Shown piece by piece: positions 1,114 through 24,489 of a DNA stretch of 29,352 bases (position 1 is the stretch's first letter; every line of letters begins with the position of its first letter). The stretch lies in IMG/VR virus record IMGVR_UViG_3300035661_000268, positions 1 through 29,352 of that record. The stretch is one strand, 5' to 3'. The DNA comes from a virus. Both the position numbers and the translations under genes were made by a program. The notes beneath the pieces were generated by a model, which was given only the letters and a program-made list of their open reading frames with translations, ran no database searches and had not been told where the DNA came from.

Positions 1114-2202
1114 TTATTCAGATGCAGAATCTACCAACGATTTGCGTTTAGCCTTCATAGAGACTTTATCCACTTGATCTTTATCAATTTCATCTGGATC
1201 GACTTTAGTACTTAGATACACGTTACTTAATGCTTCAGCTCTAGTTAAAATTTCTTTAGCATCCATATCTTTTTCGTACCAAGTTTTTTCATCTCCAACG
1301 TATGCATATCGACTGCCACGTTTTTCAACTACACCCAAATTTACGGCTGCTTCTAGCAATCCTGATAGTGGATCCATACCTGTATCATAAGGAACTTCTA
1401 CGGTCACTGTTTGGAAAGGTTTAGTGAATCGTGTTTTGAATCCTTCAACTTTCATGCGGATACCTGTCACTTCCTTTTTATCGTCTTTTAATTTGAGTTT
1501 AGTTAGTAGAATGATCTGCGATAATGCATAGCGAATAGCTTGGTTAACCACCCATACACCTTCTCCTGCAAGAATTTGCTGCGCAGTGGCTTGATACACC
1601 TGAGCTGTGACTGCCATCGCAATGTTTTTACCTTTGATAGCTTGAACAAATTGCCGTAGCATTTGTTTTAATTGTTTAGCACGCAACCCCTGGTCGCTAG
1701 ACGAGTCACCTTTAGCAAAGTGTTCAGCTTCAGATTCAGTTGATAACATATCCAAACTATCGATAGCTATGAATATAGGAGGTGCGTCATCAGCATCTCC
1801 ATATTCTGCGGTATACCCCTTTATGAATGATGATACTACTTTGATAACTTGTGGTATAGTCGTTACTGACTTGTACATATAGTTATCATGTACATTAACA
1901 CCAATCTTACTCATATAATCATCATCTAGTGCATTTTCTGAGTCGATTACTAGAATAAAGGCACCTGCATCTTGAGCACTTTTAACAGCATTTCCTATTA
2001 TAAAGCTCTTACCAGACCCGGAAGGACCAACAATCCCAGTCAATCTACCTTGAGGAATACCTCGCATAAAGCTACCTGATAGGATTCTATTTAAGCAATA
2101 ATTACCAATGGGATACCAGTATCGTGGTGGTTCAGCAGATCCACCAATACCTTCTTCTTTATCCATTATTTTTTCAAAATCTTTAAGAAAGTTCATTGTC
2201 AT
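1114..2202 (-). CDS. uvsX: UvsX-like RecA-family recombinase
   Basis: This is a RecA/UvsX strand-exchange ATPase of 362 residues (T4 UvsX is 391). It polymerises on single-stranded DNA and drives strand invasion for recombination-dependent replication. The Walker A motif GPSGSGKS is at residues 59-66, a second conserved stretch LVIDSEN at about 84-90, and Walker B IFIAID at about 143-148. The acidic/basic C-terminal tail ends in KAKRKSLVDSASE. I start at the ATG at 2202 (MTMNFLKDF) because AAAGGAAA precedes it at good spacing. A longer in-frame start at 2259 would lie inside a 13-bp hairpin and lacks a ribosome-binding site. It follows gp32 (gap 75 bases) and precedes the unknown 176-aa gene and the UvsY-like gene, the expected partners. 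Confidence 0.93.
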   Translation of the reverse strand: MTMNFLKDFEKIMDKEEGIGGSAEPPRYWYPIGNYCLNRILSGSFMRGIPQGRLTGIVGPSGSGKSFIIGNAVKSAQDAGAFILVIDSENALDDDYMSKIGVNVHDNYMYKSVTTIPQVIKVVSSFIKGYTAEYGDADDAPPIFIAIDSLDMLSTESEAEHFAKGDSSSDQGLRAKQLKQMLRQFVQAIKGKNIAMAVTAQVYQATAQQILAGEGVWVVNQAIRYALSQIILLTKLKLKDDKKEVTGIRMKVEGFKTRFTKPFQTVTVEVPYDTGMDPLSGLLEAAVNLGVVEKRGSRYAYVGDEKTWYEKDMDAKEILTRAEALSNVYLSTKVDPDEIDKDQVDKVSMKAKRKSLVDSASE

Positions 2203-2231
2203 ATTTATTTCCTTTATTGTTTTATTATGAG

Positions 2232-2262
2232 AATATGTGCCATCACGGCGATGGCACATATT
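2232..2262 (-). terminator. Intergenic hairpin between gp32 and uvsX
   Basis: A perfect 13-bp inverted repeat (2232-2244 and 2250-2262) with a 5-base loop lies between the gp32 stop and the uvsX ribosome-binding site. It has no clear U-run on the minus-strand 3' side, so it may act as a partial terminator, an RNA-processing site or an mRNA stabiliser that sets gp32 above uvsX. Its function is not decided by sequence. Confidence 0.5.
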
Positions 2263-2277
2263 TAAAAATGAACTTAT

Positions 2278-3171
2278 TTAATTTGATTTGGCACGACGTT
2301 TACGAATTTCTTCAAGGATACGTTCAGCGTCCTCATCATCTTCATCATCGTTGTTAGTGTCTTCCGCCATTGATGGTTTAGCAATTTTGTTTGGAACTGG
2401 TTTTGTTACTAGGATATCATCATTCTCATCTTCTTTGGTAGCTTTACGGTCAGATGTTTTGTACTCAGTGCCATTCATCGCTGCCTCCAACATAGCTTCA
2501 ACCTTCTCAATACCTGGATTTTTAGGTAACAACGTAGATAAAGTTGCTAGTTGACTTTTGACATTTGCGATAGTTTCCTCATCTAGTGCACTTGAGTGTT
2601 TTACAAATTTACTCGTCGCATATGATGCATATTCACCCTGTTCCTTTTTCTTGATAACAAAGTTTGTACCTAACTCATAATCAAATGGGATATCTTCAAG
2701 GTCACCATCTTCAAATGCTGCTTTGATTAAATCGTATATCTGACTACCAAGAGCCACGAATCGTACTTTTCCTTCGTGATTCTCACCGGTTTCTTTATCA
2801 ACTGGAAGAGGATCCTCCATAACCAAAACTTGACCGATGTATTGACGTTTCTTCCAATATTTTTTACCATTTTCTTTGTCTTCGGCTTTGTAGTATGCTG
2901 CAGATACTTTACAGATTGGACAATCTTCGTCATACATTTTCATACATGGTACAGATTTTTTCTCACCATTGATTGTTAATGTATGCATCTGTTTTTCTAC
3001 AAGGAATCCCATGGGGTTGTCGGTGTCAGCATCAGGCAGAAAGCGAACCACAGCCTGTTCACCGAGTTTCATATTCCAAAATGGGTAGTAATTATTCTTT
3101 AGTCCCTCACCGTCGTTCGTGTCAGGTTTTTTGAATTGTGCTTTGAGTGCATCTAATGTAAGTTTAGCCAT
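2278..3171 (-). CDS. 32: Single-stranded DNA-binding protein, gp32-like
   Basis: The protein (297 residues; T4 gp32 is 301) coats single-stranded DNA during replication, recombination and repair. The core matches gp32: W32...GEQAVVRFLPD (37-47) resembles T4 GQAVIRFLP. The zinc site is conserved as H63, C76, C84 and C87 (C-x7-C-x2-C), as in T4 H64/C77/C87/C90. YWKKRQYIGQVLVMEDP continues the OB fold. The C-terminal region is acidic (EDTNNDDEDDEDAER), as needed for partner binding. Unlike T4 it ends in a basic helix (EEIRKRRAKSN) after the acidic stretch. Start at ATG 3171. The leader carries a hairpin and four AAGAGAA heptamers, suggesting autogenous translational control as known for T4 gp32. 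uvsX follows. Confidence 0.93.
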   Translation of the reverse strand: MAKLTLDALKAQFKKPDTNDGEGLKNNYYPFWNMKLGEQAVVRFLPDADTDNPMGFLVEKQMHTLTINGEKKSVPCMKMYDEDCPICKVSAAYYKAEDKENGKKYWKKRQYIGQVLVMEDPLPVDKETGENHEGKVRFVALGSQIYDLIKAAFEDGDLEDIPFDYELGTNFVIKKKEQGEYASYATSKFVKHSSALDEETIANVKSQLATLSTLLPKNPGIEKVEAMLEAAMNGTEYKTSDRKATKEDENDDILVTKPVPNKIAKPSMAEDTNNDDEDDEDAERILEEIRKRRAKSN

Positions 3172-3176
3172 ATTAT

Positions 3177-3259
3177 TTCTCTTTTCTCTTTTCTCTTATG
3201 ATTGTTTTTGTGAGAGATGTGACCCTGTGTCACTTTGATTTTAAGTTGGCGATTCTCTT
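3177..3259 (-). promoter_or_regulatory. gp32 mRNA leader: hairpin plus repeated AAGAGAA elements
   Basis: Three perfect tandem heptamers AAGAGAA (plus-strand TTCTCTT at 3177-3183, 3184-3190, 3191-3197) form the ribosome-binding region of gp32. A fourth copy (3253-3259) lies mostly in the 6-base loop of a perfect 9-bp hairpin (stem 3244-3252 with 3259-3267). A small GTGAC/GTCAC hairpin (3219-3233) and a TCTCTC stretch (minus strand of 3212-3217), which could pair with either AAGAGAA site, lie between. T4 gp32 represses its own translation through a leader pseudoknot and an unstructured A/U-rich operator. This arrangement looks like a different version of the same logic; that is inference. Confidence 0.5.
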
Positions 3260-3274
3260 CGCCAACTATTATCG

Positions 3275-3303
3275 ATATTAATACATATTGATAATCTAGT
3301 CAA
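3275..3303 (-). promoter_or_regulatory. sigma70-like promoter of gp32
   Basis: The minus strand reads TTGACT (3303-3298), 17 bases, then TAATAT (3280-3275). Expected transcription start is near 3268, exactly where the 9-bp leader hairpin begins, so the mRNA would carry that hairpin at its 5' end. A GATAAATA late-like box (3340-3333) lies further upstream and could add late transcription. Confidence 0.5.
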
Positions 3304-3320
3304 CAATTTAATAAATCAAA

Positions 3321-3348
3321 TTGTCATGATAGTATTTATCATTAAAAT
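3321..3348 (+). promoter_or_regulatory. Weak sigma70-like promoter for the glycosyltransferase
   Basis: TTGTCA (3321-3326), 16 bases, TAAAAT (3343-3348). It is divergent from the gp32 promoter. A 9-bp inverted repeat (3369-3377/3382-3390) containing TATAAT sits between it and the GAGG ribosome-binding site and could be an alternative -10 or a leader hairpin. No T4 late box precedes this gene. Confidence 0.3.
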
Positions 3349-3400
3349 ATTAAAGGTATACAATATTTTACTATATAATACTATATAGTAAGAGGCTGAT

Positions 3401-4048
3401 ATGAATGAAATTGATGTACATATATTAATTCCAAACATTTATTACAGAATGGATTGGTACGATCAATGTATCAGTAGTTTATCCAATCATCCAATTAATA
3501 TACACCACACAAAGAGTGTAGATGGTGATATTAGACAGGCAAGGTTACATGGTTTTACTACTGGGTCTGCTCCGTATGTGTCGTTTGTAGATGTAGATGA
3601 TTACATTAATGAAGGGTCTTACGAAGCCTGTTTAGATGTGTTAGATCACAATCCGGATATATGTGGAGTATATACTACATCCACTCACATCAAAGTTGAC
3701 AGTATTGGAGGAGAATATAACAAAGGACTTATCCATCCATATAGACCATGGTCCATAGATGCTGGGCAAACTAACATTGCTGAAATCCACCAACTCGTAG
3801 TAATGAGACGCAATTTACTTACAGATCTATACAAAATAGTATATAATGATATACCAAAAATGGTATATTCGGAATTATACTTATACTGGGCTTTAGCACA
3901 TATAGCCCCTTGGAAAGCTGTTGATTTTGTTGGTTATAACTGGAGAGATCATAGTGCTGGAGCTCATCACCACAGAATAGATGAAATGGAATTAAGGCGA
4001 TGTGTCGGGTTTATTCGACAGAACCATCGCCCATATTTACAGTATTAA
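3401..4048 (+). CDS. GT-A type glycosyltransferase (family 2-like)
   Basis: The 215-residue protein has the layout of a nucleotide-sugar glycosyltransferase. An N-terminal beta strand is followed by an IP dipeptide (HILIPNIYYR, 8-17). YVSFVDVDDYI at 59-69 supplies the DxD metal/nucleotide-binding motif (D64-x-D66-D67). It has no signal peptide or membrane segment, so it should act in the cytoplasm. The acceptor is unknown: DNA bases, a virion glycoprotein or a host surface sugar are all possible. Start at ATG 3401 follows AAGAGG. It is the only plus-strand gene between the recombination operon and the fibre locus, and it ends 4 bases before the convergent fibre gene's stop, with no obvious terminator between. 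Confidence 0.75.
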   Translation: MNEIDVHILIPNIYYRMDWYDQCISSLSNHPINIHHTKSVDGDIRQARLHGFTTGSAPYVSFVDVDDYINEGSYEACLDVLDHNPDICGVYTTSTHIKVDSIGGEYNKGLIHPYRPWSIDAGQTNIAEIHQLVVMRRNLLTDLYKIVYNDIPKMVYSELYLYWALAHIAPWKAVDFVGYNWRDHSAGAHHHRIDEMELRRCVGFIRQNHRPYLQY

Positions 4049-4052
4049 CATA

Positions 4053-7000
4053 TTATCCTGTTAGAGAACTACCAGTTAATATTATGGTAACATCTTTAAT
4101 ATTAGATTCTATCACACTGGGCGTATACAAGTCTAGTACATCCCCTCTATGCATCGTGAATGGTGCCGGTATGTTATATGTCATAGTACTGACGCCAGCA
4201 TTAAAACTAACTGTGCCTACACTAACATTATTTAATTTTATTGTGTATGTTACACTAGTGACCGGAGCCACTTTGCATACCCCAAGTGGAGGGTTAGTTA
4301 TTGGGTCAATAACTATAGTTCTAGGCGAAAGGAATGATCCCACATCTGATGAACCGTAAATCATATTACCAGCAACAAAAAATGATATATCATAAGGAAT
4401 TGTGTACACATGATTGTCTACATATTGCTTGGTTGCTGCTTGTAAAGGGGATTGTGGATCCCCATACAGTTGCAGTAATCCAGACATAGTATCCCCAGAT
4501 TTTGATACTACACCAGATAGATCTACTGGACTCCATATAGGTGGATTATCAGCACCTTGGGATGTCAATAATTCTCCAGCCTGTCCCACATTACCAGATA
4601 AACTCCACTCTCCAAGCGCTGTTATACGCAACCTTTCCCAGATACCATATATACCAGGATCTACGCCTGTCCTAAAACTAATATAACCTGAGTCCGAATT
4701 AAAACCAGCCCCACTATTAGTACCCGCATTTATAAAAACAGATCCTGGGTTTCCGAGTTGATCTATACCTTCACCAGCTTGAATAGTAATATCTCCAGCA
4801 GCATAGTTACCTGCCTGTGAGGGACCTGCGTACAAAGCTATCGATCCACCCATACCACCAGCTGCGCCGCCTGCACCAGCAGTGACATTGACATTACCAC
4901 CATCTCCGTGGTTACCACCCTCTTTAGCATCAACGTATATGGATCCACCGAATCCGCCATTGAATCCAAACCCTGATTCTATCGTCACGTCTCCACCATT
5001 TGCGGGAACTCCTGTTGGTGTCACTTGTACCATTGTAGCACCTACTGGTGCTAAAACAGAGGCACTTCCTGCTGATAGTGTTAATTTTCCACCGTTCCCG
5101 CCCGTTATTCCTCCAGTACCAGCTTGTATCAATACTAAGCCACCATTACTACCAAAGCCGTCGTTTGATGATGCATCTGGACCTCCAGCACCGGCTAATA
5201 TATTAATTTCTCCACCGAAGCTACCGCCACTGGCATCACCAGAAACAAGATGTATACTACCACCATTATAGTTGTTTGTTGGATCATTGATATCAGCTGA
5301 TGCTGCTTGGATTTGTATGGCAGATGGTGTAACTGTTGCTAATGGAATAAAATTAAACATACCAGTAGACACATCTACAGAAAACTCGGGTGCACTAGTT
5401 ACTGATGTACCGGATCCATATACTACTTGTCCAATTGGTTGTGCTATATCGCCCAATAAATTATCTACATATTGTTTTGTGACTGCATCTAATGCATCAA
5501 CAGGGTCAGCAAATAGAGTCAACATACCGGTCATGATACCACCAGCAATTTTAAGATATTCGCTGTGTGTGTGATTAACCAGAGCAAATGCTGTAGAATC
5601 AAGACCATCGATTGTGTCTGCATCCAAATGACTTCCACTTCCGCCTACCACATTTAATATATTTGCAGATAAACTTAGGTTAGCTCCTGGTACAATTGAC
5701 ATTTGCCCACCAAACTCTATCCATTTTACTGCGGCTGCATTAAATGCATATTGGTGGAAACTATGAAGGGATAGCACATTGTTGACATACACAGCATTAT
5801 TATTAACTGGAACATAGAATGTCCACGATGGTGAATTCCATATAGCTACATTGTTTTTCTGATTAAGGAATGATCCAGTTGGTACTGTAGATGATTCTAT
5901 AGCAACACCAATGCGCATACCTGCTGTCGGTACACCTAAATCAGTCCAACCCACAGTGGAACCATCCCAGCGCATCATATGCCCATCTTTGCCTGCCCAT
6001 ACGCCATTTCCGCCTGAGGCAACAACGTATATGTCTGTATAGCTTGGATTGTTTGGTGGTGAGTTTAAGTTATCGGATACTAAATTTACATACGAAATTG
6101 GATCTATCCAGATTAATCCCATTACTCTAGAATCTACATACTGTTTAGTGGCAGCCTGTAGTGTTGTTGTTGGATTACCTGATAAAGTTAACAATCCAGT
6201 CATCGTACCACCGGATAAATTCAATTTATTAGTATCTAATAAATCGATGGTGTTTTGTAAGTTATCAGATGGTAATCCCGTATGTCCAATATAAGTCACA
6301 TCTGTAGCTGGGTGAGTATGGGGTTTTGGTGTTCTAGCATCGGTAAGTCTAGGATCATTATCTCCCACTACCAAAGGATTGTTAACATCTGCTGGTACAG
6401 TAACCATCTTAACTATACCAAATGCAGTTGTTGTAGCAACACCTACCGTTGCTACATTACCATTGATTCCTGGCGCACCGGGACCACCTAAACCTTGTTC
6501 TATGAATATTGTGTTTGGTGATATAACCCGGGCTATTGGTACTGCTTTTGGGCGTAGAGAATTTGTTACATGAGGGTCTATATCTGTCAGAACACCATTT
6601 GTATCTACCCATAACGGAGTATTAACATTACTCCAATTCCAATTTGGGTTAGTAACAATACCTTGTAATACGAGATTTGTTACATCTCCATATAGTTTAC
6701 CGTCTGTAACGATGGCTATGATTGCATTCCCTATATCTTCATATGAGGCCAGGCCAATTCGGTCAAATGATTTATAGGTAACTATGCTATAATCCGGTAT
6801 ATTCTCAGCAGCAAAAGCTGTAATTACAGCTGGCTCTAGCTTCGATGTTTTTATATTTGCCCCATCCACGAAGAATTGATCTTCAGTGGTCATAAACATA
6901 CCGTTGGATTGTGTTATAACTTTACCAAAACCATCAAATAATATGCGACCGGAGTCGTACGATACTGCTGTACCTACCTGTGTTCCTAAATTATTATATA

Positions 7001-16034: not shown

Positions 16035-17192
16035 TTACCCCAGAGTAATCGGATTGTTTGTTTCTATTTCATCAAACTCACCGTAAGATGGCATTTGTAT
16101 TGACATAAACATCTGTTCTACAGTACCCCAAGGCACATGTTTATCCAGCCGATTTGTATGACGTACATACAACTCATCAATAGATATGGGAAATAATACA
16201 GCTACCACTTTATATCCTTTGTGTTTAGCAGCATCAATAAAAAAGTGGCGGCGCTTTGTGCTAATATTAGTATTATCTACAAATACATCAACCTTTTTAA
16301 CCAACAACTCAAGAAAAGCCTTTTGTGAGTTTGTGTTAAATGTTGAATCTTCCGTCGATGCTAAAAATGCAGCTTGATAATATTCTTTAGGATCTTCAAT
16401 ACTATCATCACCATACCAACGCAATCGTAAGGTATCCCACGAATATACAGCACTAGATTCGGTTCGATATTTAGGATTATTCAAGAATGTTGATTTCCCA
16501 CTACCTGATGCCCCTATTAAAATGAAACATGTAGGGGCATCATCTGATATATGTCGTGTTATTTGGAATTCTTCACACTTTTTATTAAAATCTGATGTCC
16601 AATCAACTACATGTTGACGATTTACTTCCATATTGTCAGATATCCGCCCAAATTGATCAGCTAGTAATACGTTCGTTAACACACGGTATCCCTGATGTAT
16701 ATCAGGAAACATATTTACAGCTGTTTCTACAAGGCGGCTAATCTTATCAGTTTTTGACGTACCATAAGGTAAATGATGTTCAATCATCCAGCTTATCTTC
16801 CAGAAATCAGCCGTGGTAATTCCTACCCGTATTAATAAATCAGTATTTTGCACAGCCCAGTCTTCCCATAGACGAGCAGATATTTGCTCATGCCCTGGAT
16901 AAGAGAAATATACCCCACGTTCTTCGTTATGTCGTTCAGTACGTGCCGCTGGTTTACCTACGTCATGAAACAACGCAGCAAAATAACCACACCAATCCCC
17001 AATAGTCCATTGATCAGAATTGACAAACTTAATATATTCTTTAATTACCATTTCGGTATGAACTAACACGTTATCTTCTCTATGCCATAGAGAATTTTCT
17101 ACCGTATCACGCATTGCAGTAAATAACGGATTATGCAATACGGTTGCGTGAAATAATTCAATAGTGTTAATAGTGTTAATAGGGGTGTGCAT
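16035..17192 (-). CDS. HD-Pnk-type bifunctional polynucleotide kinase/phosphatase
   Basis: The 385-residue protein fuses an N-terminal HD phosphohydrolase to a C-terminal P-loop kinase. HD residues are H45 (VHTE), H76-D77 in LFHDVGK, H101, H139/H140 and D179 (LADQFG). The kinase part begins near 220 with FILIGASGSGKST (P-loop 227-235), then SWDTLR (251-256) and VDNTNISTKRR (305-315), typical of the polynucleotide kinase family. This order is that of the bacterial HD-Pnk group (Runella enzyme), which phosphorylates 5'-OH ends and removes 2',3'-phosphates. T4 Pnk uses a HAD phosphatase at the other end instead. Likely role: healing RNA or tRNA cut by host defence nucleases. It is driven by a strong sigma70-like promoter, consistent with early expression. 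Weak ribosome-binding site. Confidence 0.82.
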   Translation of the reverse strand: MHTPINTINTIELFHATVLHNPLFTAMRDTVENSLWHREDNVLVHTEMVIKEYIKFVNSDQWTIGDWCGYFAALFHDVGKPAARTERHNEERGVYFSYPGHEQISARLWEDWAVQNTDLLIRVGITTADFWKISWMIEHHLPYGTSKTDKISRLVETAVNMFPDIHQGYRVLTNVLLADQFGRISDNMEVNRQHVVDWTSDFNKKCEEFQITRHISDDAPTCFILIGASGSGKSTFLNNPKYRTESSAVYSWDTLRLRWYGDDSIEDPKEYYQAAFLASTEDSTFNTNSQKAFLELLVKKVDVFVDNTNISTKRRHFFIDAAKHKGYKVVAVLFPISIDELYVRHTNRLDKHVPWGTVEQMFMSIQMPSYGEFDEIETNNPITLG

Positions 17193-17224
17193 GTCATTAT
17201 ACCGAGTAATTGTTAATAGTTATT

Positions 17225-17252
17225 ATTATACATTAAAATATATTTTAGTCAA
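17225..17252 (-). promoter_or_regulatory. sigma70-like promoter of HD-Pnk
   Basis: Minus strand TTGACT (17252-17247), 16 bases, TATAAT (17230-17225), 33 nt upstream of the ATG at 17192. It has a consensus -10 and no late box. This is the best sigma70 match in the window. Confidence 0.6.
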
Positions 17253-17256
17253 CCTG

Positions 17257-17285
17257 TTGACTTTTTATATGACCCTAGAGATAAT
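17257..17285 (+). promoter_or_regulatory. Divergent sigma70-like promoter facing the terminase gene
   Basis: TTGACT (17257-17262), 17 bases, GATAAT (17280-17285) on plus. Its -35 forms a 7-bp inverted repeat (AGTCAAC-CT-GTTGACT, 17247-17262) with the HD-Pnk -35. No plus-strand gene follows for several kilobases, so if it is active it makes a non-coding RNA antisense to terminase. Confidence 0.35.
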
Positions 17286-17337
17286 AGTTTTTGTCACAAA
17301 GGTTAAGGATAGAACCCTATATTATTATAATAGTCTT

Positions 17338-17374
17338 AATAGTTATAACTATTGGGATGGCACAACGGCACAAC
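17338..17374. repeat. 16-bp palindrome and tandem octamer downstream of terminase
   Basis: A perfect 16-bp palindrome AATAGTTATAACTATT (17338-17353) is followed by two tandem GGCACAAC octamers (17359-17366, 17367-17374) directly next to the terminase stop codon (17376-17378). No U-run follows on the minus strand, so a terminator call is weak; a protein-binding site is possible. Confidence 0.4.
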
Positions 17375-17375
17375 T

Positions 17376-18524
17376 CTACGCAAATGGATCAAAAGAGTTT
17401 GGATCATTGGGATCTGTGAATCCACCAGCTCCTCCATATCCTCCAGCACTATCGCCCATTGACATTGCTAAGCCAACATCACTTTCATCATATTCACCAA
17501 AATACTCCTCTTCGCTAACTGAATATAGCGTATCATAAGCATCTTGTTCGTATGTAGATATCTCTTCAAGTAATCGAAGAACTATGAGAACCGCTGATAT
17601 TGAGTCATCAGTTGAACCAATCTGAGCTTCATAACTTCCATTCTTACGAGCATAGTTTTTCATCTCACCTAATAAAGACTTAGATCTGATACCCAATTTA
17701 CTACGTTCTACTAATTGTTTGAAGTTTAAGCAAGCCCGAATTTTAGATTTCCCTGTTGTAGTCATTCCTAATCTACCTTTACCTTCTTCTGAAACAAATT
17801 CCCCTACATGAGGAGGATTTTCGTCAGCTTGGTATAGTGATATTATACCTTCACCTACACCATTATTTTCAACAGAGAAGTACACATTAGATCCTGCCAT
17901 ACTAGCCTTTTTCAGTATCCAAACTAGTGTTAAGTATAATACAGGGGATGATGTGGTGTTTGACCTAAACTCTGCAACTTGCTGCAAATCAGGAAATGAG
18001 AATACCTCAATCGAACTAAAGTCATTACCACTACCTGTAGCTGGGTCTACACCGATTAAGTACGTTTTTCCTTTTTCGAAGTTGCACCACCAATTAATAC
18101 CTCGGGCATCAGGCTCCGTCATATTTACCTGATCGTTTAATGTATGTAGAAGTATCGAACTAATCAATAATGCATCCGAAGATAAGAAGATGCAATTATG
18201 ACATAATAACCCATTTGCGAAGTAGGTGTGTGTCTCGGTATTTATTATATCATATGTTGTCTCTTCGCCTACATATGATATGGATGTAATGGTTTTGTTT
18301 GGTATACCTATCAAAACCAACCCTATCATCAACTCCTTTGTTCGTATCTCACGTCCATCTTCTGTAAAAAATACATGATTATTTGAAGCATCTATGTCCG
18401 TACCATCATCGAATAATACTTTCCATATGTGTTTTATACCCTGATCGGAGATCCCTTGAAAGTCTACATATCCCTCTTGGGTTTGTACTTTCCAACCTCG
18501 GTTATTAACTGCCATTTGGTTCAT
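17376..18524 (-). CDS. 17: Intein C-half fused to the nuclease half of terminase large subunit
   Basis: The 382-residue product starts with a 110-residue intein C-fragment (block B-like DASNNH, 45-50; block F YDIINTETHTYFANGLLCHN, 91-110) and then the C-extein from C111. The extein (272 residues) is the RNase H-like nuclease of gp17. GVDPATGSGNDFS carries the first catalytic Asp (extein D50), YFSVENNGVGEG the Glu (E109), and GSTDDSISA the last Asp (about D197), matching T4 D401/E458/D542. It cuts concatemeric DNA during packaging. ATG 18524 has AAAGGG about 8 bases upstream. Function should require trans-splicing to the ATPase half coded at 18657-19550. No own promoter is evident. Confidence 0.9.
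   Translation of the reverse strand: MNQMAVNNRGWKVQTQEGYVDFQGISDQGIKHIWKVLFDDGTDIDASNNHVFFTEDGREIRTKELMIGLVLIGIPNKTITSISYVGEETTYDIINTETHTYFANGLLCHNCIFLSSDALLISSILLHTLNDQVNMTEPDARGINWWCNFEKGKTYLIGVDPATGSGNDFSSIEVFSFPDLQQVAEFRSNTTSSPVLYLTLVWILKKASMAGSNVYFSVENNGVGEGIISLYQADENPPHVGEFVSEEGKGRLGMTTTGKSKIRACLNFKQLVERSKLGIRSKSLLGEMKNYARKNGSYEAQIGSTDDSISAVLIVLRLLEEISTYEQDAYDTLYSVSEEEYFGEYDESDVGLAMSMGDSAGGYGGAGGFTDPNDPNSFDPFA
18195..18524 (-). other. Split intein C-fragment (IntC, 110 aa)
   Basis: This is the coding span of the intein C-half, from M1 to the terminal Asn (C-H-N), followed by Cys as the +1 extein residue. Both C-terminal splicing residues (His-Asn) and the +1 nucleophile are present. 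There is no endonuclease domain. Its long length beside a short N-half matches the AceL-TerL arrangement. Confidence 0.85.
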
Positions 18525-18648
18525 ATTTTTTGCCCTTTATCCGATTTTCTGTCATCGACAGCATTTGTAAATTATCAACGGATGCAATCAGTTCTACAGG
18601 AATACCATTTCGAAACCCATAAAACAGCGGCACGATTAATACATCCAT
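18505..18648 (-). CDS. 47-codon reading frame between the intein halves
   Basis: I found this frame by reading the 132-base gap. The 47-codon frame starts ATG 18648, 11 bases after the stop of the upstream half, and ends inside the first codons of the IntC gene in another frame. The predicted peptide begins MDVLIVPLFYGFRNGIPVEL and ends GKKYEPNGS. No recognised domain. It may be a real small gene, the decayed linker of a once-continuous intein, or chance. No good ribosome-binding site is seen. A 5-bp CTGTC/GACAG hairpin (18549-18561) lies within it. Confidence 0.3.
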   Translation of the reverse strand: MDVLIVPLFYGFRNGIPVELIASVDNLQMLSMTENRIKGKKYEPNGS

Positions 18649-18656
18649 CTATTCAT

Positions 18657-19550
18657 TTACACCAAACTATCATTATTTTCTAATTTATAATATAACTCTT
18701 TCATTGTTAACATTTTTTTGTTACCAAATTCATCCATTATGGTCACAAAAGTATATCCGGGGCAGCACTCATATTCCTGTTGCCATTTCTCTTCACCAAT
18801 TTTTGCAATTTCAGCCCGTTTGAATGATTCGTCACGACCAGGTGGTTCATCCCATTTAACCCACGTAGATTTAAAATCACTAATACCTAATTCCGCACTT
18901 CTCCACAATTGGGCGAATAAATTAGAGTCTCCATTTGGTGTAGATGCAATAATACACGATCCACCCGTAGCCAATGTTGGTGATATCGATGTCCAAAATT
19001 CTTCTTGTATACCAGGTCTAACAAAAGCAAACTCGTCGCAAAATAGTAAAGATATTGACATACCACGACCGGAGTTTTCTGATGTTGCAGCTGATACAAT
19101 ACGACTCATGTTATCAAAACCAACACCGTGTTTATTCCAACCGTCATCTGCAACACCTGGTTTGAGCCACGCTGGCAAATATTCATACGCATATCTAATA
19201 CGCGAAATCATTTCCATTGCGTTAGAATTTTTATTTGCTGCTATGAGGACAGTTTTATCTTCATTAAAAATAGCATACCACAATAAGAATGCTGCTGATG
19301 TGGTAGATTTACCAGTCTGTCTGGCGGATAGTACGATATTGTATCGGTTGTGTTGATAATTATAGATTAACGTTCGTTGATAATCATACAATTCAAATTT
19401 GATAGCCCCTTTTATAGGGTGTTGAATCATCACATAGGTTTCGATGAAATATACCGGATCTTGTGAACATTTGAGTAATTCTCTTACCTGTTCGGGGGTA
19501 TATTCCATTTCTTCATGGGCACGCTTGATGCGTGGATTTCTAACCGCCAT
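18657..19550 (-). CDS. 17: ATPase half of terminase large subunit with intein N-half
   Basis: The 297-residue product is the N-extein (1-261) plus a 36-residue intein N-fragment. The N-extein is the packaging ATPase: ELYDYQRTLI (53-62, adenine-binding Q motif), Walker A SARQTGKST (75-83), Walker B LLFCDEF (168-174) and coupling motif IIASTPNG (200-207). It ends EKWQQEYE, the point where T4-type terminases continue directly with Cys. The next residues C-C-P-G-Y-T-F-V match the intein block A pattern C1-x-x-G-x-T-x-V. A stop follows 36 residues later. ATG 19550 has AGGAG; late box at 19583-19576. After splicing, terminase would be 533 residues (T4 gp17 is 610). Confidence 0.92.
   Translation of the reverse strand: MAVRNPRIKRAHEEMEYTPEQVRELLKCSQDPVYFIETYVMIQHPIKGAIKFELYDYQRTLIYNYQHNRYNIVLSARQTGKSTTSAAFLLWYAIFNEDKTVLIAANKNSNAMEMISRIRYAYEYLPAWLKPGVADDGWNKHGVGFDNMSRIVSAATSENSGRGMSISLLFCDEFAFVRPGIQEEFWTSISPTLATGGSCIIASTPNGDSNLFAQLWRSAELGISDFKSTWVKWDEPPGRDESFKRAEIAKIGEEKWQQEYECCPGYTFVTIMDEFGNKKMLTMKELYYKLENNDSLV
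18660..18767 (-). other. Split intein N-fragment (IntN, 36 aa)
   Basis: The coding span for the intein N-half begins at Cys262 of the N-terminal terminase product. Block A residues Cys1, Gly4, Thr6 and Val8 are present. The fragment contains one further helix-like region (MKELYYKLE). Such a short N-half is unlike canonical split inteins (about 100 residues) and like AceL-TerL (about 25 residues). Confidence 0.85.
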
Positions 19551-20176: not shown

Positions 20177-20611
20177 TTACTTAAACAATTGGTGTTCAGT
20201 GATAATACGGAATGTCCATCCTCGTTGTTCAGCAAATTGTTTAGCACTTTCCCATTTTGATTGGTTGATAGCATATGTTATATTTTCATATAATCTAGTA
20301 TTGGAATTTCGTGATTTAGATGGTGTAGTTTGTGCCGCCGGCTTAATCTCAACTAACTCGGTTTTAATTTCGCCCTTACATGTCTTATACTTAATATAGT
20401 AATCTACATAGTATTTGTGTATTTTCCCATCAGTGGGTTTAATATATGGTATAGCAATCTCCTCACTAGCCCACTCCAATATATTTGGGTTATTATCCAG
20501 AAATATGTTAAATCGAAATTCCCATGAAGACATATATCGTATTTTTGTGATATCACCATTGTATTTTTCAGGGTGTTTTGGTGTGTATAACCCTTGTTTA
20601 AAATTAGCCAT
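20177..20611 (-). CDS. 4: Head completion protein, gp4-like
   Basis: The 144-residue protein matches T4 gp4 (150 residues) along most of its length: YTPKHPEKYNGDITKIRYMSSWEF resembles T4 WVPKNISKYRGDPKKITYRSNWEK. YYVDYYI followed by ELVEIKPAAQT has the E/D...E-x-K layout of a small nuclease fold, and KWESAKQFAEQRGWTFRIITEHQL matches the gp4 C-terminus. gp4 acts after packaging to complete heads before tail joining. Its ATG overlaps the stop of the upstream gene (TAATG at 20613-20609), so it is translationally coupled to that gene. Confidence 0.9.
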   Translation of the reverse strand: MANFKQGLYTPKHPEKYNGDITKIRYMSSWEFRFNIFLDNNPNILEWASEEIAIPYIKPTDGKIHKYYVDYYIKYKTCKGEIKTELVEIKPAAQTTPSKSRNSNTRLYENITYAINQSKWESAKQFAEQRGWTFRIITEHQLFK

Positions 20612-22071
20612 TAGTGTTTGAATATACTTGGTAGTGTTCCAGTCACCACTGAATTCCCTCCAGTTGTAGTCGGTATAGTTTTATAATCCGTCAGTTGTGT
20701 ACCAGACACAGTAGTAGGTATTAACTGAGTAGATGGTGATGGAACCCCAGTAATTGATACTGGATTAGGGGTAAATGTACTAGTTGTATTGCTAGAGGAT
20801 TCGCCATGCGATTCATTATCTTTATGTTGTACCTCGCCGTTTGCATTTAATCCCTCTAGATGCGTATTCAGAGTTACATCTTCGTATATGTCTGGCACTT
20901 TCCCTTTAGCAGATACACCAGTATCTATAAACACTGTATCATAAGCTAACTGTAACGTAATACTGCTCAATCCAGCATCTTCCATTGATAATGCATCTAG
21001 AGACATTTGCATCACTTTGGGGTTTTTGAATTCATATATATTCATAAATTTACCATAATCATATACATGATACAAATTAATAGAACTTAAAATAGTCATC
21101 GAATCTTCGGTGCTAGATGTACCTTGAGGAGTTTGTAATGTACCAAATGAGCCTGCATAGTTATTAGTTGCTAATGTACCATGATGGCCTGTAAGATCAT
21201 ATTGCATACTAATTTGTTGGTAGGACAGTGGGTCAGTGGATCCCTGTACGTTGGCAATCGGACTAACTGCTCGTAAGTATGATGCGAAAAAATTCATCGA
21301 TTTATTGTGGATATCATCATGAATTTGTATTGTTATGGGTTCATATGTGGTAGACTTTGGTATTTTTGTACGGTATCCATACATATTGACGTCATCATGC
21401 TGAATGGATATATTGGGTCTATCAAATTGTTTAATCAGAAATGCAAAATCGTTTTTGAATTCCTTTCCCGACATACCACCATTAAATTTGAACTCAACCA
21501 CATACAAAAATTTGTATTTTGGGGCATGTAGAAATAAATCATCAGCATAAGCCTTAACCGGTTTAATTTTTTCTGCCTGACCATTAGCACCAGTCGTTGA
21601 ACCAGATACACTAGCTCCATATACACTAGCTATTGAACCAGTCCCCTGTAATTGTGATACATTAACCAAGCTCCCTAACGATAGCATCTGACTAGCGGTT
21701 GCGTTGTTGTTTAATGCAGCAGCCTTGGTCACATCTAATGATGATAGTGAATTAACACTCTTTTGTGTTACATCCCCACTCAAAATACCTTGAAATATTT
21801 TATTAGCGGCATCTACTCCAGCACTAACAATGGCACCGCTAATATTACTTAATTCTGGTAATGAACTCGCTGGAATACCCAACGCGCTTAATATTTGTTG
21901 ACTGCCTTTACTAACAAATCTAGACAATCCTGATTGTATCGAATTATTGTATTTTCCGGTTACAGCATGCACTCCTCTGCTAACAATACCATGAACCTGC
22001 CTATCAACAGAGTTGCTTATCGTGCTTTGAGCGCCTTGTGCAGCACTTCCAAATAAATCTTCTAGCGACAT
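20611..22071 (-). CDS. Tail-tube-fold baseplate protein (gp54/gp48-like)
   Basis: The 486-residue protein has a Ser/Ala-rich helical N-terminus (1-160). The central domain (about 175-370) has features of the tail tube/gp54 fold: KYKFLYVVEFKF, DRPNISIQHDDVNMYGYRTKIPKSTTYEPITIQIHDD and ...MNFFASYLRAV, comparable to T4 gp54 RLSYETDWNYN...ITGRELDPLVISF. A Thr/Ser/Pro-rich flexible tail of about 100 residues follows. It is probably the tube initiator or an inner baseplate-tube junction protein; gp48 is an alternative. ATG 22071 has GGGAG and a late box at 22110-22103. It lies just downstream of gp19, whose fold it shares. Confidence 0.6.
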   Translation of the reverse strand: MSLEDLFGSAAQGAQSTISNSVDRQVHGIVSRGVHAVTGKYNNSIQSGLSRFVSKGSQQILSALGIPASSLPELSNISGAIVSAGVDAANKIFQGILSGDVTQKSVNSLSSLDVTKAAALNNNATASQMLSLGSLVNVSQLQGTGSIASVYGASVSGSTTGANGQAEKIKPVKAYADDLFLHAPKYKFLYVVEFKFNGGMSGKEFKNDFAFLIKQFDRPNISIQHDDVNMYGYRTKIPKSTTYEPITIQIHDDIHNKSMNFFASYLRAVSPIANVQGSTDPLSYQQISMQYDLTGHHGTLATNNYAGSFGTLQTPQGTSSTEDSMTILSSINLYHVYDYGKFMNIYEFKNPKVMQMSLDALSMEDAGLSSITLQLAYDTVFIDTGVSAKGKVPDIYEDVTLNTHLEGLNANGEVQHKDNESHGESSSNTTSTFTPNPVSITGVPSPSTQLIPTTVSGTQLTDYKTIPTTTGGNSVVTGTLPSIFKH

Positions 22072-22185: not shown

Positions 22186-22797
22186 TTAAACACTACCACC
22201 AGATGTTGCATAACCATTACCATTATCACCAGGACGTCCACCACCATATGGGTGAATAACTTGTCGAGCGTGATCAAATCTGATTGATATATTAATTTTC
22301 ATAGATTCGTTGTCAGCATATGCCATTTCATTCCAGTTTGTTTGCTTTAACCAACAACCTTCTAGAGTCCATGTCTCGAGTGGCTGTGTATTACCATCCA
22401 AAGTCTCAATGATTGTCTGGAATTTATACACAGCACCATTTCCAGCTGTAGCTAAATATAGCTGAGCAGCAGGATCGCTACCAATCAACCATTGTTGCTT
22501 TTGTAGTTGTTGTTGTATAATTGTTGCTGCTTGTCCTGTAATATCATCTTCGAATACTATAGCACATTCTTCCCAGTTGTGTTTACCAGCAACCCAAGCC
22601 CTTGAGTTATAACGATGCAATTCAACTTCTTCGAAGGAGAGACTAGGCCGCGCAACTTGTATAGCTTGGATGGATAATCCTTGACTAGCAGGAACATATC
22701 CGATGCTATTGAACATCACCCGATATTTGTTTTTTAGTTTTGGTTGTAATATTCCGGTTCCAATATCCGGTATTCCAAAGTCGTTAATTGTCGCCAT
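22186..22797 (-). CDS. 19: Tail tube protein, gp19-like
   Basis: The 203-residue protein (T4 gp19 is 163) has the tube monomer pattern. An N-terminal KNKYRVMFNSIGYVP...IQAIQVARPSLSFEEVELHRYNSR resembles T4 gp19 RPNLFQVEISYL...CKATALPAGIVEKI. A mid region HNWEECAIVFEDD and a C-terminal WTLEGCWLKQTNWNEMAY..MKINISIRFDHA are like T4 IKGLWPTNVGELQLDW...FEVTLALDYW. It adds a Gly/Asn-rich 20-residue tail. Hexameric rings stack to make the inner tube through which DNA passes. ATG 22797 has GGAG. Its late box (22852-22845) lies 48 nt upstream. The gene is separated from gp18 by a plus-strand homing endonuclease gene. Confidence 0.85.
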   Translation of the reverse strand: MATINDFGIPDIGTGILQPKLKNKYRVMFNSIGYVPASQGLSIQAIQVARPSLSFEEVELHRYNSRAWVAGKHNWEECAIVFEDDITGQAATIIQQQLQKQQWLIGSDPAAQLYLATAGNGAVYKFQTIIETLDGNTQPLETWTLEGCWLKQTNWNEMAYADNESMKINISIRFDHARQVIHPYGGGRPGDNGNGYATSGGSV

Positions 22798-22866: not shown

Positions 22867-24489
22867 ATGAATGAAAAATTGAAATCGCTAATAGATCGAA
22901 GTAATACACTTAAAAAGTGTGGTAAGTTAAAAACACATCCCGGATACCCAGAACTGTTGGAATTGACACAGTTTCTCCCTTTAACAGCTTTTGTTTCTAC
23001 CAGGATATGGCATGTAACCAATAATATACTATATATTCCATTATGTAAAATGTGCACCAACCAAACCAAATGGCGCAAGGAGACAAATACATATAACATA
23101 TATTGTGGTTCCAAGTGTGCACATTCTGATGCCTCTGTAATAGAGAAAACCAAAAAAACTAATCAAGCAAAATATGGAGCCGATACTGCAATGCAGAATG
23201 TAGATATTCGGGAAAGAATTATTCAATTGTGGGTGGATAATATGGGTGTTGATAACCCATCTAAATCTACCACCGTTAAATATAAAAAACAAAACACCAG
23301 CCAACTAACTTATGGGGTGCCACACTCTTTGAGTAGCCCTATTGTTATTAGAGCTAGACAACAAAGCAATTTGTTAAAATATGGACATACGAATGTATTA
23401 GCGTCTACCTACGGCAAGGAAACATCTCATAAATCCATGCTAGATAGATATGGAAAATCCTATCCTAATCAACAACATATTAGTGATGACACGTTCGCGT
23501 TACTTAATAACAAAGATTGGTTATACGATCAACATTATGTATTACAAAAAACGCTTACTACAATCGCATCTGATATCGGGGTAGATGGAGTTACTGTCAG
23601 TAAATATTTACATAACCATGGACTGATAACCAAATATCACCAATGTTCAACTGGGGAACGAGCTGTGGGGGATTTTATTGAACAGTTAGGGGTAAATATC
23701 ACCCGTAATGATAGGAGTATTATACCTCCATTGGAAATTGATATTTTTATACCTGAACATAATTTAGCTATTGAATATTGTGGATTGTATTGGCACAGTG
23801 ATCAATTGGGAAAACACAAAAACTATCACAAATCTAAATACGAAGAGTGCAAAAAAAGAGGTATTCATCTATTGACTATATTTGAGGATGAATGGCTACA
23901 AAAGACTGAAATATTTCATAAAAAGATAGTATATCTCTTGAACAAATCACCAAACCGGGTATATGCCAGGCACTGTGACATTCAAACATTAACTGCTAAT
24001 CAGAAGCGCTTGTTTCTGCAAGAAAATCATATTCAGGGCAATGGTGCAGGGTCAATTAATTATGGATTAATATATGATGGTATAATAGTAGCTTGTATAA
24101 CATTCCAACAAACATCACCTGGAGTCTATCTATTGAATAGATATGCAACATCGGTTAATGTAGTTGGTGGATTTAGTAAATTATTGAACCACTTCAAAAG
24201 AAATATAAAATGGACTAAAATTACAACATTTGCAGATCAGCGATTTAGTAATGGAGATTTATATAATATTAATGGTTTTACTTGTGATAAAATAATTCCA
24301 CCAGATTACTATTATTCCCCTGATGGGATAAACAGATTCCATAAATCAAATTACCGCCGAAAGAATTTACCACATTTATTAAAACAGTTTGACCCAGCAT
24401 TAAGTGAAGTAGAAAATTGTTTGAATAATAATATATTAAGAATATGGGATTGTGGAAAACTTCGTTATGTATTAACTAATTATACATAA
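22867..24489 (+). CDS. Free-standing Vsr-like homing endonuclease with zinc and NUMOD-like repeats
   Basis: The 540-residue protein has several parts. First is a zinc-binding site CKMC...CGSKC (C60, C63, C80, C84). Next comes a run of short repeats of the form K/R-Y-G-x (near 103, 149, 172, 195), which resemble DNA-contacting repeats of phage homing endonucleases. A helix-turn-helix TTIASDIGVDGVTVSKYL (231-248) follows. The catalytic core is LEIDIFIPEHNLAIEYCGLYWHS (289-311), HKSKYEECKKRGIHLLTIFEDEW (321-343). The E-x-D...E-Y-x-G-x-Y-W-H and I-F-E-D-E-W blocks place it in the Vsr-like, I-Bth0305I-type family. It lies between gp19 and gp18 on the opposite strand, as expected for an inserted mobile gene. 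ATG 22867 follows GGAAGG. A shared terminator lies at 24551. Confidence 0.82.
   Translation: MNEKLKSLIDRSNTLKKCGKLKTHPGYPELLELTQFLPLTAFVSTRIWHVTNNILYIPLCKMCTNQTKWRKETNTYNIYCGSKCAHSDASVIEKTKKTNQAKYGADTAMQNVDIRERIIQLWVDNMGVDNPSKSTTVKYKKQNTSQLTYGVPHSLSSPIVIRARQQSNLLKYGHTNVLASTYGKETSHKSMLDRYGKSYPNQQHISDDTFALLNNKDWLYDQHYVLQKTLTTIASDIGVDGVTVSKYLHNHGLITKYHQCSTGERAVGDFIEQLGVNITRNDRSIIPPLEIDIFIPEHNLAIEYCGLYWHSDQLGKHKNYHKSKYEECKKRGIHLLTIFEDEWLQKTEIFHKKIVYLLNKSPNRVYARHCDIQTLTANQKRLFLQENHIQGNGAGSINYGLIYDGIIVACITFQQTSPGVYLLNRYATSVNVVGGFSKLLNHFKRNIKWTKITTFADQRFSNGDLYNINGFTCDKIIPPDYYYSPDGINRFHKSNYRRKNLPHLLKQFDPALSEVENCLNNNILRIWDCGKLRYVLTNYT

What the first reader, a model, noticed from the sequence alone, without database searches (positions are those of the whole stretch)
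17376..19550. Terminase large subunit coded in two genes by an atypically split (AceL-TerL-like) intein
The ATPase half (N-extein 261 aa) ends EKWQQEYE and runs into C-C-P-G-Y-T-F-V, an intein block A, then stops after 36 intein residues. The nuclease half starts with a 110-residue intein C-fragment ending C-H-N and continues with Cys-Ile-Phe-Leu, so the joined extein reads QQEYE-CIFLS as in T4-type gp17. All splice residues (Cys1, His-Asn, Cys+1) are present, and ATPase and nuclease catalytic residues are intact, so trans-splicing looks functional and packaging would depend on it. The very short N-half is of the rare AceL-TerL kind and could be a new, naturally orthogonal member.
Basis: partly seen in the sequence, partly recalled or inferred. 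Interest (0 to 1): 0.92.

Follow-up and report, generated by a model that had tools for sequence, protein, structure and literature searches.

The report
Phage packaging motor in two genes
A tailed phage makes the two halves of its DNA-packaging motor from separate genes, and a split self-splicing protein (intein) very probably stitches them together; this is a new member of a known but little-characterised kind, and the gap between the genes still holds the wreck of the DNA-cutting gene found there in its relatives.

Summary
On the minus strand, terL is two genes: ATPase half plus a 36-residue intein N-fragment (IN, 18657-19550), and a 110-residue intein C-fragment (IC) plus nuclease half (17376-18524). 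All splice residues are present. Two relatives have an uninterrupted terL lacking exactly this 573-bp element, so the joined product (261+272=533 aa) is the native protein. IN and IC are predicted with high confidence to form one HINT domain; best structural match is VidaL, best sequence match Cat (AceL/GOS-TerL consensus). It is an AceL-TerL-type atypically split intein; trans-splicing itself is inferred.

The nearest relatives carry full endonuclease genes there. Two pairs of near-identical inteins elsewhere show the same event: endonuclease deleted, split kept. The same terL site also holds contiguous mini-inteins. In an IMG/VR sample, 34 of 44 typable distinct inteins of this family were split, so the layout is not rare among phages, only among characterised inteins. 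Orthogonality is untested. Ordinary in kind, well documented here, useful as a tool lead.

The parts
18768..19550 (-). TerL N-extein: ATPase domain, 261 aa, Walker A SARQTGKST and Walker B LLFCDEFAF
   Evidence: Pfam Terminase_6N E 8.5e-13; PHROG terminase E 5.6e-58; start preceded by AAGGAG
18660..18767 (-). Intein N-fragment (IN), 36 aa, Cys1 and block A (CCPGYTFV), followed by TAA 18659-18657
18525..18656 (-). 132-nt gap between the two genes; reading on in the IN frame gives five more stops after the IN stop before the IC start
   Evidence: six stops in the 191-codon insert, the first being the IN stop; gap absent with the whole element in L002 and L003
18505..18648 (-). 47-codon ORF, truncated C-terminal remnant of an HNH-type homing endonuclease; overlaps the IC start by 20 nt; residues 5-46 (about 18511-18636) carry the homology
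   Evidence: 46-54% identical to endonuclease-like proteins between phage genes 18 and 19, best E 3e-5 in a 2.3-Gb search; PHROG 5104 E 1.6e-6; 36% to the gap endonuclease of L019; alignment shows the upstream LDH motif lost
18195..18524 (-). Intein C-fragment (IC), 110 aa: block B NNH, block F YDIINTETHTYF, block G ANGLLCHN
   Evidence: PDB 6dsl CatC E 2.9e-7; Pfam Intein_splicing 22.6 bits, below cut-off; NCBIfam intein_Cterm 16.6 bits, above cut-off; AAAGGG upstream of ATG
17376..18194 (-). TerL C-extein: Cys+1 and nuclease domain, 272 aa plus stop
   Evidence: Pfam Terminase_6C 19.2 bits, below cut-off; PHROG terminase E 2.3e-24; 89% aa identity to L002
22867..24489 (+). Free-standing homing endonuclease (DUF7487, CGLYWH motif) between tail-tube and sheath genes; homologous to endonucleases found inside the intein gap of the nearest relatives
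   Evidence: PHROG homing endonuclease E 5e-117; 36% to L014 and 43% to L015 gap endonucleases

Best explanation
It is an AceL-TerL-type, atypically split class-1 intein in the terminase large subunit gene. The two genes are translated separately. The 36-aa IN on the ATPase half binds the 110-aa IC on the nuclease half and completes one HINT fold. Cys1 forms a thioester at Glu-261, Cys+1 attacks it, the terminal Asn of IC cyclises with help from the penultimate His, and a native peptide bond joins ...QQEYE to CIFLS..., giving a 533-aa TerL. The element arrived by homing into an intein-free terL. It once carried an endonuclease gene in the gap; a deletion removed all but its last ~43 codons. 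The tail was probably kept because it overlaps the start region of the second gene. Shown: gene layout, precise insertion, residues, family membership, endonuclease remnant, purifying selection on both exteins. Predicted: joint fold. Inferred: splicing in trans, and the reason the tail was kept.
For: Empty-site relatives. Identical split arrangement in two other assemblies. Invariant intein residues H50, D92, Y101, N104, H109, N110 shared across the family. Best PDB sequence match CatC 6dsl E 2.9e-7. AlphaFold2 model from a 19-row alignment: IN pLDDT 95-97, IC about 96, the gap read through as linker below 50; best structural match VidaL 6vgv, Z 19.8, rmsd 1.6 A over 134 residues, then other inteins. 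Both exteins under purifying selection against L002: dN/dS 0.018/0.34 and 0.058/0.89. Same site in relatives holds split inteins with a full endonuclease gene (L014, L015, L019, L040, L043, L087) and contiguous mini-inteins (L017, L073, L077, L080). Vibrio phage Va1, an isolated phage, has the same site split the same way.
Against: No splicing was seen. Block A is slightly off consensus (CCPGYT rather than CxxGDT), though L014 and L015 also start CC. dN/dS on the intein itself could not be estimated because the nearest relative is only about 50% identical and synonymous sites are saturated. The window is a 29-kb fragment, so another terL copy elsewhere in the genome cannot be excluded.
Confidence: 0.92

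Rival explanations
1. Gene in pieces without splicing: the two halves assemble non-covalently into a working terminase, as reported for a ribonucleotide reductase split by a mobile endonuclease, and the intein remains are vestigial.
For: Such a functional split gene is described for the nrdA gene of a T4-type phage (cited in PMC10448857). An endonuclease remnant does lie in the gap.
Against: Every intein block and splice residue is intact in both fragments, and the two fragments are predicted to form a confident HINT fold. A vestige would be expected to lose these.
Confidence: 0.04
2. A recently broken contiguous intein, so that this terL is a dying allele or a defective phage.
For: IN and IC lie in the same reading frame and the insert is 573 nt (191 codons). 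Contiguous inteins occur at this same site in relatives.
Against: The break lies at the split point used by AceL-TerL, GOS-TerL and the split relatives, the gap is foreign endonuclease sequence, IC has its own ATG with an SD-like AAAGGG upstream, and the identical allele recurs in two other assemblies.
Confidence: 0.03
3. Assembly artefact: two phage genomes, or an intron-like insert, joined by mistake.
For: The source is a metagenome, and intein-free and intein-bearing alleles occur in the same metagenome, 3300036715.
Against: Two contigs from other assemblies are identical across the whole element and both flanks (11,146 bp at 100%, 4,628 bp at 99.96%).
Confidence: 0.01

Closest known systems
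AceL-TerL intein (Cys1/Cys+1, 25+104 aa)
   Same: Same host gene, same split region soon after block A, same nucleophiles, close fragment sizes (table in PMC11766414).
   Different: Longer IN (36 aa), CCPGY at block A, and no activity data. AceL letters were not fetched from a database.
GOS-TerL intein (Ser1/Cys+1, 37+115 aa) and the engineered Cat consensus (6dsl)
   Same: Nearly the same fragment lengths; Cat is the best PDB sequence match.
   Different: GOS-TerL uses Ser1; here it is Cys1.
VidaL intein (6vgv)
   Same: Best match by structure, Z 19.8.
   Different: Only 19% identical in sequence over the aligned residues.
Vibrio phage Va1 terminase (MK387337)
   Same: terL split at the same site by an atypically split intein: IN 33 aa, IC 39% identical.
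   Different: In Va1 a large endonuclease-like domain is fused in front of IC; here only a remnant of an HNH type is left.
Fractured genes: split inteins with an endonuclease gene in between (Dassa et al. 2009; a PolB example with an HNH endonuclease in phage MIJ3, PMC6892783)
   Same: The general arrangement of split intein halves around a homing endonuclease gene; nearest relatives L014 and L015 show it intact.
   Different: Here the endonuclease is reduced to about 43 codons. The 2009 paper itself is not held in the library; this rests on own knowledge and its citation.

Membership tests
AceL-TerL-type atypically split intein | Natural split about 25-37 residues after Cys1, with the rest of the HINT domain on the second gene | tested here: met
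   36-aa IN then stop; 110-aa IC on a separate ORF
AceL-TerL-type atypically split intein | Class-1 splice residues: Cys1, block B His, penultimate His, terminal Asn, Cys+1 | tested here: met
   C1; NNH at IC 48-50; H109-N110; next residue Cys; invariant or shared in the family alignments
AceL-TerL-type atypically split intein | The two fragments together form one HINT fold | tested here: met
   Predicted, not solved: pLDDT 95-97 for IN and about 96 for IC, Z 19.8 to VidaL. The model is of one chain with the gap read through, not of a two-chain complex
AceL-TerL-type atypically split intein | Sequence kinship to AceL/GOS-TerL | tested here: met
   Best PDB match is CatC, E 2.9e-7, ahead of all other inteins
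AceL-TerL-type atypically split intein | Inserted in terL between exteins that read as an intact protein once joined | tested here: met
   Intein-free relatives L002 and L003 read QQEYECIFLSS without interruption
AceL-TerL-type atypically split intein | Splices in trans | not testable with these tools
   needs co-expression
Fractured-gene arrangement (split intein around a homing endonuclease gene) | Complete endonuclease ORF between the halves | tested here: not met
   Only a 47-codon C-terminal remnant without the DH motif
Fractured-gene arrangement (split intein around a homing endonuclease gene) | Descent from such an arrangement | tested here: met
   Remnant homologous to HNH-type endonucleases, including the gap gene of L019 at the same terL site

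The most novel reading that the evidence does not exclude
The endonuclease-free split intein is mobilised in trans: the free-standing endonuclease at 22867-24489, whose homologues sit inside the intein gap of the nearest relatives (L014, L015), cuts intein-free terL and so drives homing of a split intein that no longer carries its own nuclease (collaborative homing).
Probability: 0.1. Interest if true: 0.7.

Novelty: new member of a known kind. Interest (0 to 1): 0.47.

Why it matters
If it splices, packaging in this phage depends on protein trans-splicing, and the pair adds a Cys1/Cys+1 tool with a 36-aa tag-sized N-fragment, distant enough from AceL-TerL to be worth testing for orthogonality. 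More generally, the comparison gives a natural series at one terL site: intein-free, contiguous mini-intein, split with endonuclease, split with the endonuclease deleted. Three separate endonuclease families show the last step with the split kept. This suggests that splitting follows from endonuclease occupancy and can outlast it, which makes the origin of atypically split inteins directly testable with existing contigs.

Tried and rejected
A hidden contiguous intein by frameshift or readthrough was considered: IN and IC are in one frame, but the IN frame meets several stops, and the 47-codon ORF opens only after a stop in its own frame (frame translations). Rejected.

Xanthomonas phage XacN1 and phage C48C1 looked intein-bearing because the N-half match ran past residue 262; translation shows intact TerLs without an intein.

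The 36-aa IN alone finds nothing in phages or the PDB that means anything; its kinship rests on alignment and on the joint fold. An attempt to scan viral contigs with the 47-aa remnant failed because the query is too short. The genome-contig scan with IC gave only two short stretches (29 query residues) in Planotetraspora, not relevant here.

L002 first looked like an empty site for the free-standing endonuclease; reading the junction shows it keeps both ends of the gene, so it is an internal deletion, not an empty site. No shared target sequence between that endonuclease's location and the terL site was found (local score below the shuffle mean), which weakens the trans-homing idea but does not exclude it; note that the site tested is that deletion scar.

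dN/dS on the intein could not be measured (saturated).

Full report
What is there. On the minus strand the terminase large subunit is encoded by two ORFs. 19550-18657 gives 261 residues of TerL ATPase domain ending EEKWQQEYE, then 36 residues beginning CCPGYTFV, then TAA. 18524-17376 gives 110 residues ending ANGLLCHN, then CIFLSSDALL and the nuclease domain. The two ORFs are 132 nt apart and in the same frame. Pfam supports ATPase, intein C-part and nuclease assignments, the last two below Pfam's gathering cut-off; PHROGs supports both terminase halves strongly.

It is a precise insertion. Two relatives from IMG/VR encode one uninterrupted TerL, L002 (534 aa) and L003 (536 aa), reading QQEYECIFLSS. 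Nucleotide alignment leaves exactly 573 nt of the window unmatched, from Cys1 to the terminal Asn. Two further contigs, L001 and L004, from separate metagenome assemblies, carry the identical split allele. L004 and the intein-free L002 come from the same metagenome, 3300036715, so both states coexist there.

It is an intein, and of the atypically split kind. The best PDB match is CatC, 6dsl, E 2.9e-7, the engineered consensus of AceL-TerL and GOS-TerL (PMC11766414). That review lists AceL-TerL as 25+104 aa with Cys1/Cys+1 and GOS-TerL as 37+115 aa with Ser1/Cys+1; the window pair, 36+110 with Cys1/Cys+1, sits between them.

Predicted fold. The insert was read through (stops as Gln/Trp) so that IN and IC were on one chain, and folded with 18 relatives in the alignment. 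IN scores pLDDT 95-97 and IC about 96, while residues 46-81, the gap, stay below 50. The best structural match is VidaL, an atypically split intein, Z 19.8, rmsd 1.6 A over 134 residues, followed by other inteins; Foldseek agrees and also lists Cat 6dsl.

The gap is the wreck of an endonuclease. A 47-codon ORF (18648-18505) in the gap matches the C-termini of endonuclease-like phage proteins, some annotated as homing endonucleases, that lie between tail genes 18 and 19 in Acinetobacter, Klebsiella, Raoultella and Citrobacter phages: 46-54% identity, E down to 3e-5 in 2.3 Gb; PHROG 5104 E 1.6e-6. Alignment shows that everything upstream, including the LDH motif, is lost, so it should be inactive. 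The remnant overlaps the IC start by 20 nt. A full endonuclease of the same C-terminal type sits in the gap of L019/L020, split inteins at the same terL site.

The neighbours at the same site. Taking ICs related to the window's, the EYE|C site of terL carries: split inteins with a gap endonuclease of the DUF7487 type (L014, L015), HNH-like (L019) or GIY-YIG type (L043, L087); split inteins with the endonuclease fused in front of IC (L039, Va1); and contiguous mini-inteins (L017, L073, L077, L080). Two pairs show endonuclease loss with the split kept. L085 is 99-100% identical to L087 except that 581 nt of the GIY-YIG gene are gone, with the stop of the first gene now overlapping the start of the second. 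At another terL site, L037 is 98-99% identical to L035 but has lost most of its endonuclease and keeps its last 38 residues. The window is a third case, with a third endonuclease type. A plausible reason that the tail survives is that it contains the start region of the second gene; this is inference.

How common. Across 65 distinct ICs, 34 had a recognisable IN on a separate ORF, 10 were contiguous and 21 could not be typed. Split gaps range from overlapping ORFs to about 2.5 kb. Insertion points include terL Walker A (GK|T), Walker B (DE|C) and the EYE|C site. So the layout is widespread in phages although few have been characterised. The sample was chosen by similarity to atypically split ICs and is capped at 80 loci, so the proportions are not population estimates.

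Selection and history. Against L002, both exteins are under purifying selection (dN/dS 0.018/0.34 and 0.058/0.89), so TerL is still needed after the split. Synonymous divergence is much higher on the C side, and identity falls to 79% next to the insertion and climbs back to 99% about 1.2 kb away, where the L002 contig ends; this fits co-conversion of flanking DNA from a more distant donor during homing, but other dips occur in the region, so it is suggestive only.

The free-standing endonuclease. An ORF at 22867-24489(+), between tail-tube and sheath genes, is homologous to the gap endonucleases of the nearest relatives (36% to L014, 43% to L015). In L002 the same gene is reduced to its two ends. 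Whether it can mobilise the split intein in trans is open; no shared target sequence was found.

Verdict. New here: the empty-site proof, the joint fold prediction, the endonuclease remnant and the comparative series. Splicing, the effect on packaging and orthogonality remain to be shown at the bench.

Noticed in passing
window 22867-24489 (+): Homing endonuclease (DUF7487, PHROG 3339) inserted antisense between tail-tube and sheath genes; the sister contig L002 keeps only its two ends (internal deletion).
   Followed up: partly
window 16968-18194: Identity to L002 drops to 79% right beside the intein on the C side and recovers to 99% about 1.2 kb away; possible co-conversion tract.
   Followed up: partly
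L012 (Campylobacter phage NCTC12673, GU296433) 2995-4323: The IC-bearing second half of terL is unannotated in this record; the intein sits at the Walker B site (VSHN|CAFID).
   Followed up: partly
L013 (E. coli phage phiS, PP449093) 1257-4368: terL of an isolated Krischvirus is in two overlapping genes, split by an atypically split intein at Walker B, with an endonuclease domain fused after IN.
   Followed up: partly
L085 60-456 versus L087 2475-3452; L037 948-1561 versus L035 2873-4312: Near-identical pairs in which the gap endonuclease has been deleted while the intein remains split.
   Followed up: yes
window 16035-17192 (-): Protein with an HD-like N-terminal region and a polynucleotide-kinase-like C-terminal P-loop domain, directly downstream of terL; also beside terL in L014.
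   Followed up: no
window 20611-22071 and 22186-22797 (-): Two neighbouring tail-tube-like genes (both PHROG 4542), the first much longer with low-complexity extensions.
   Followed up: no
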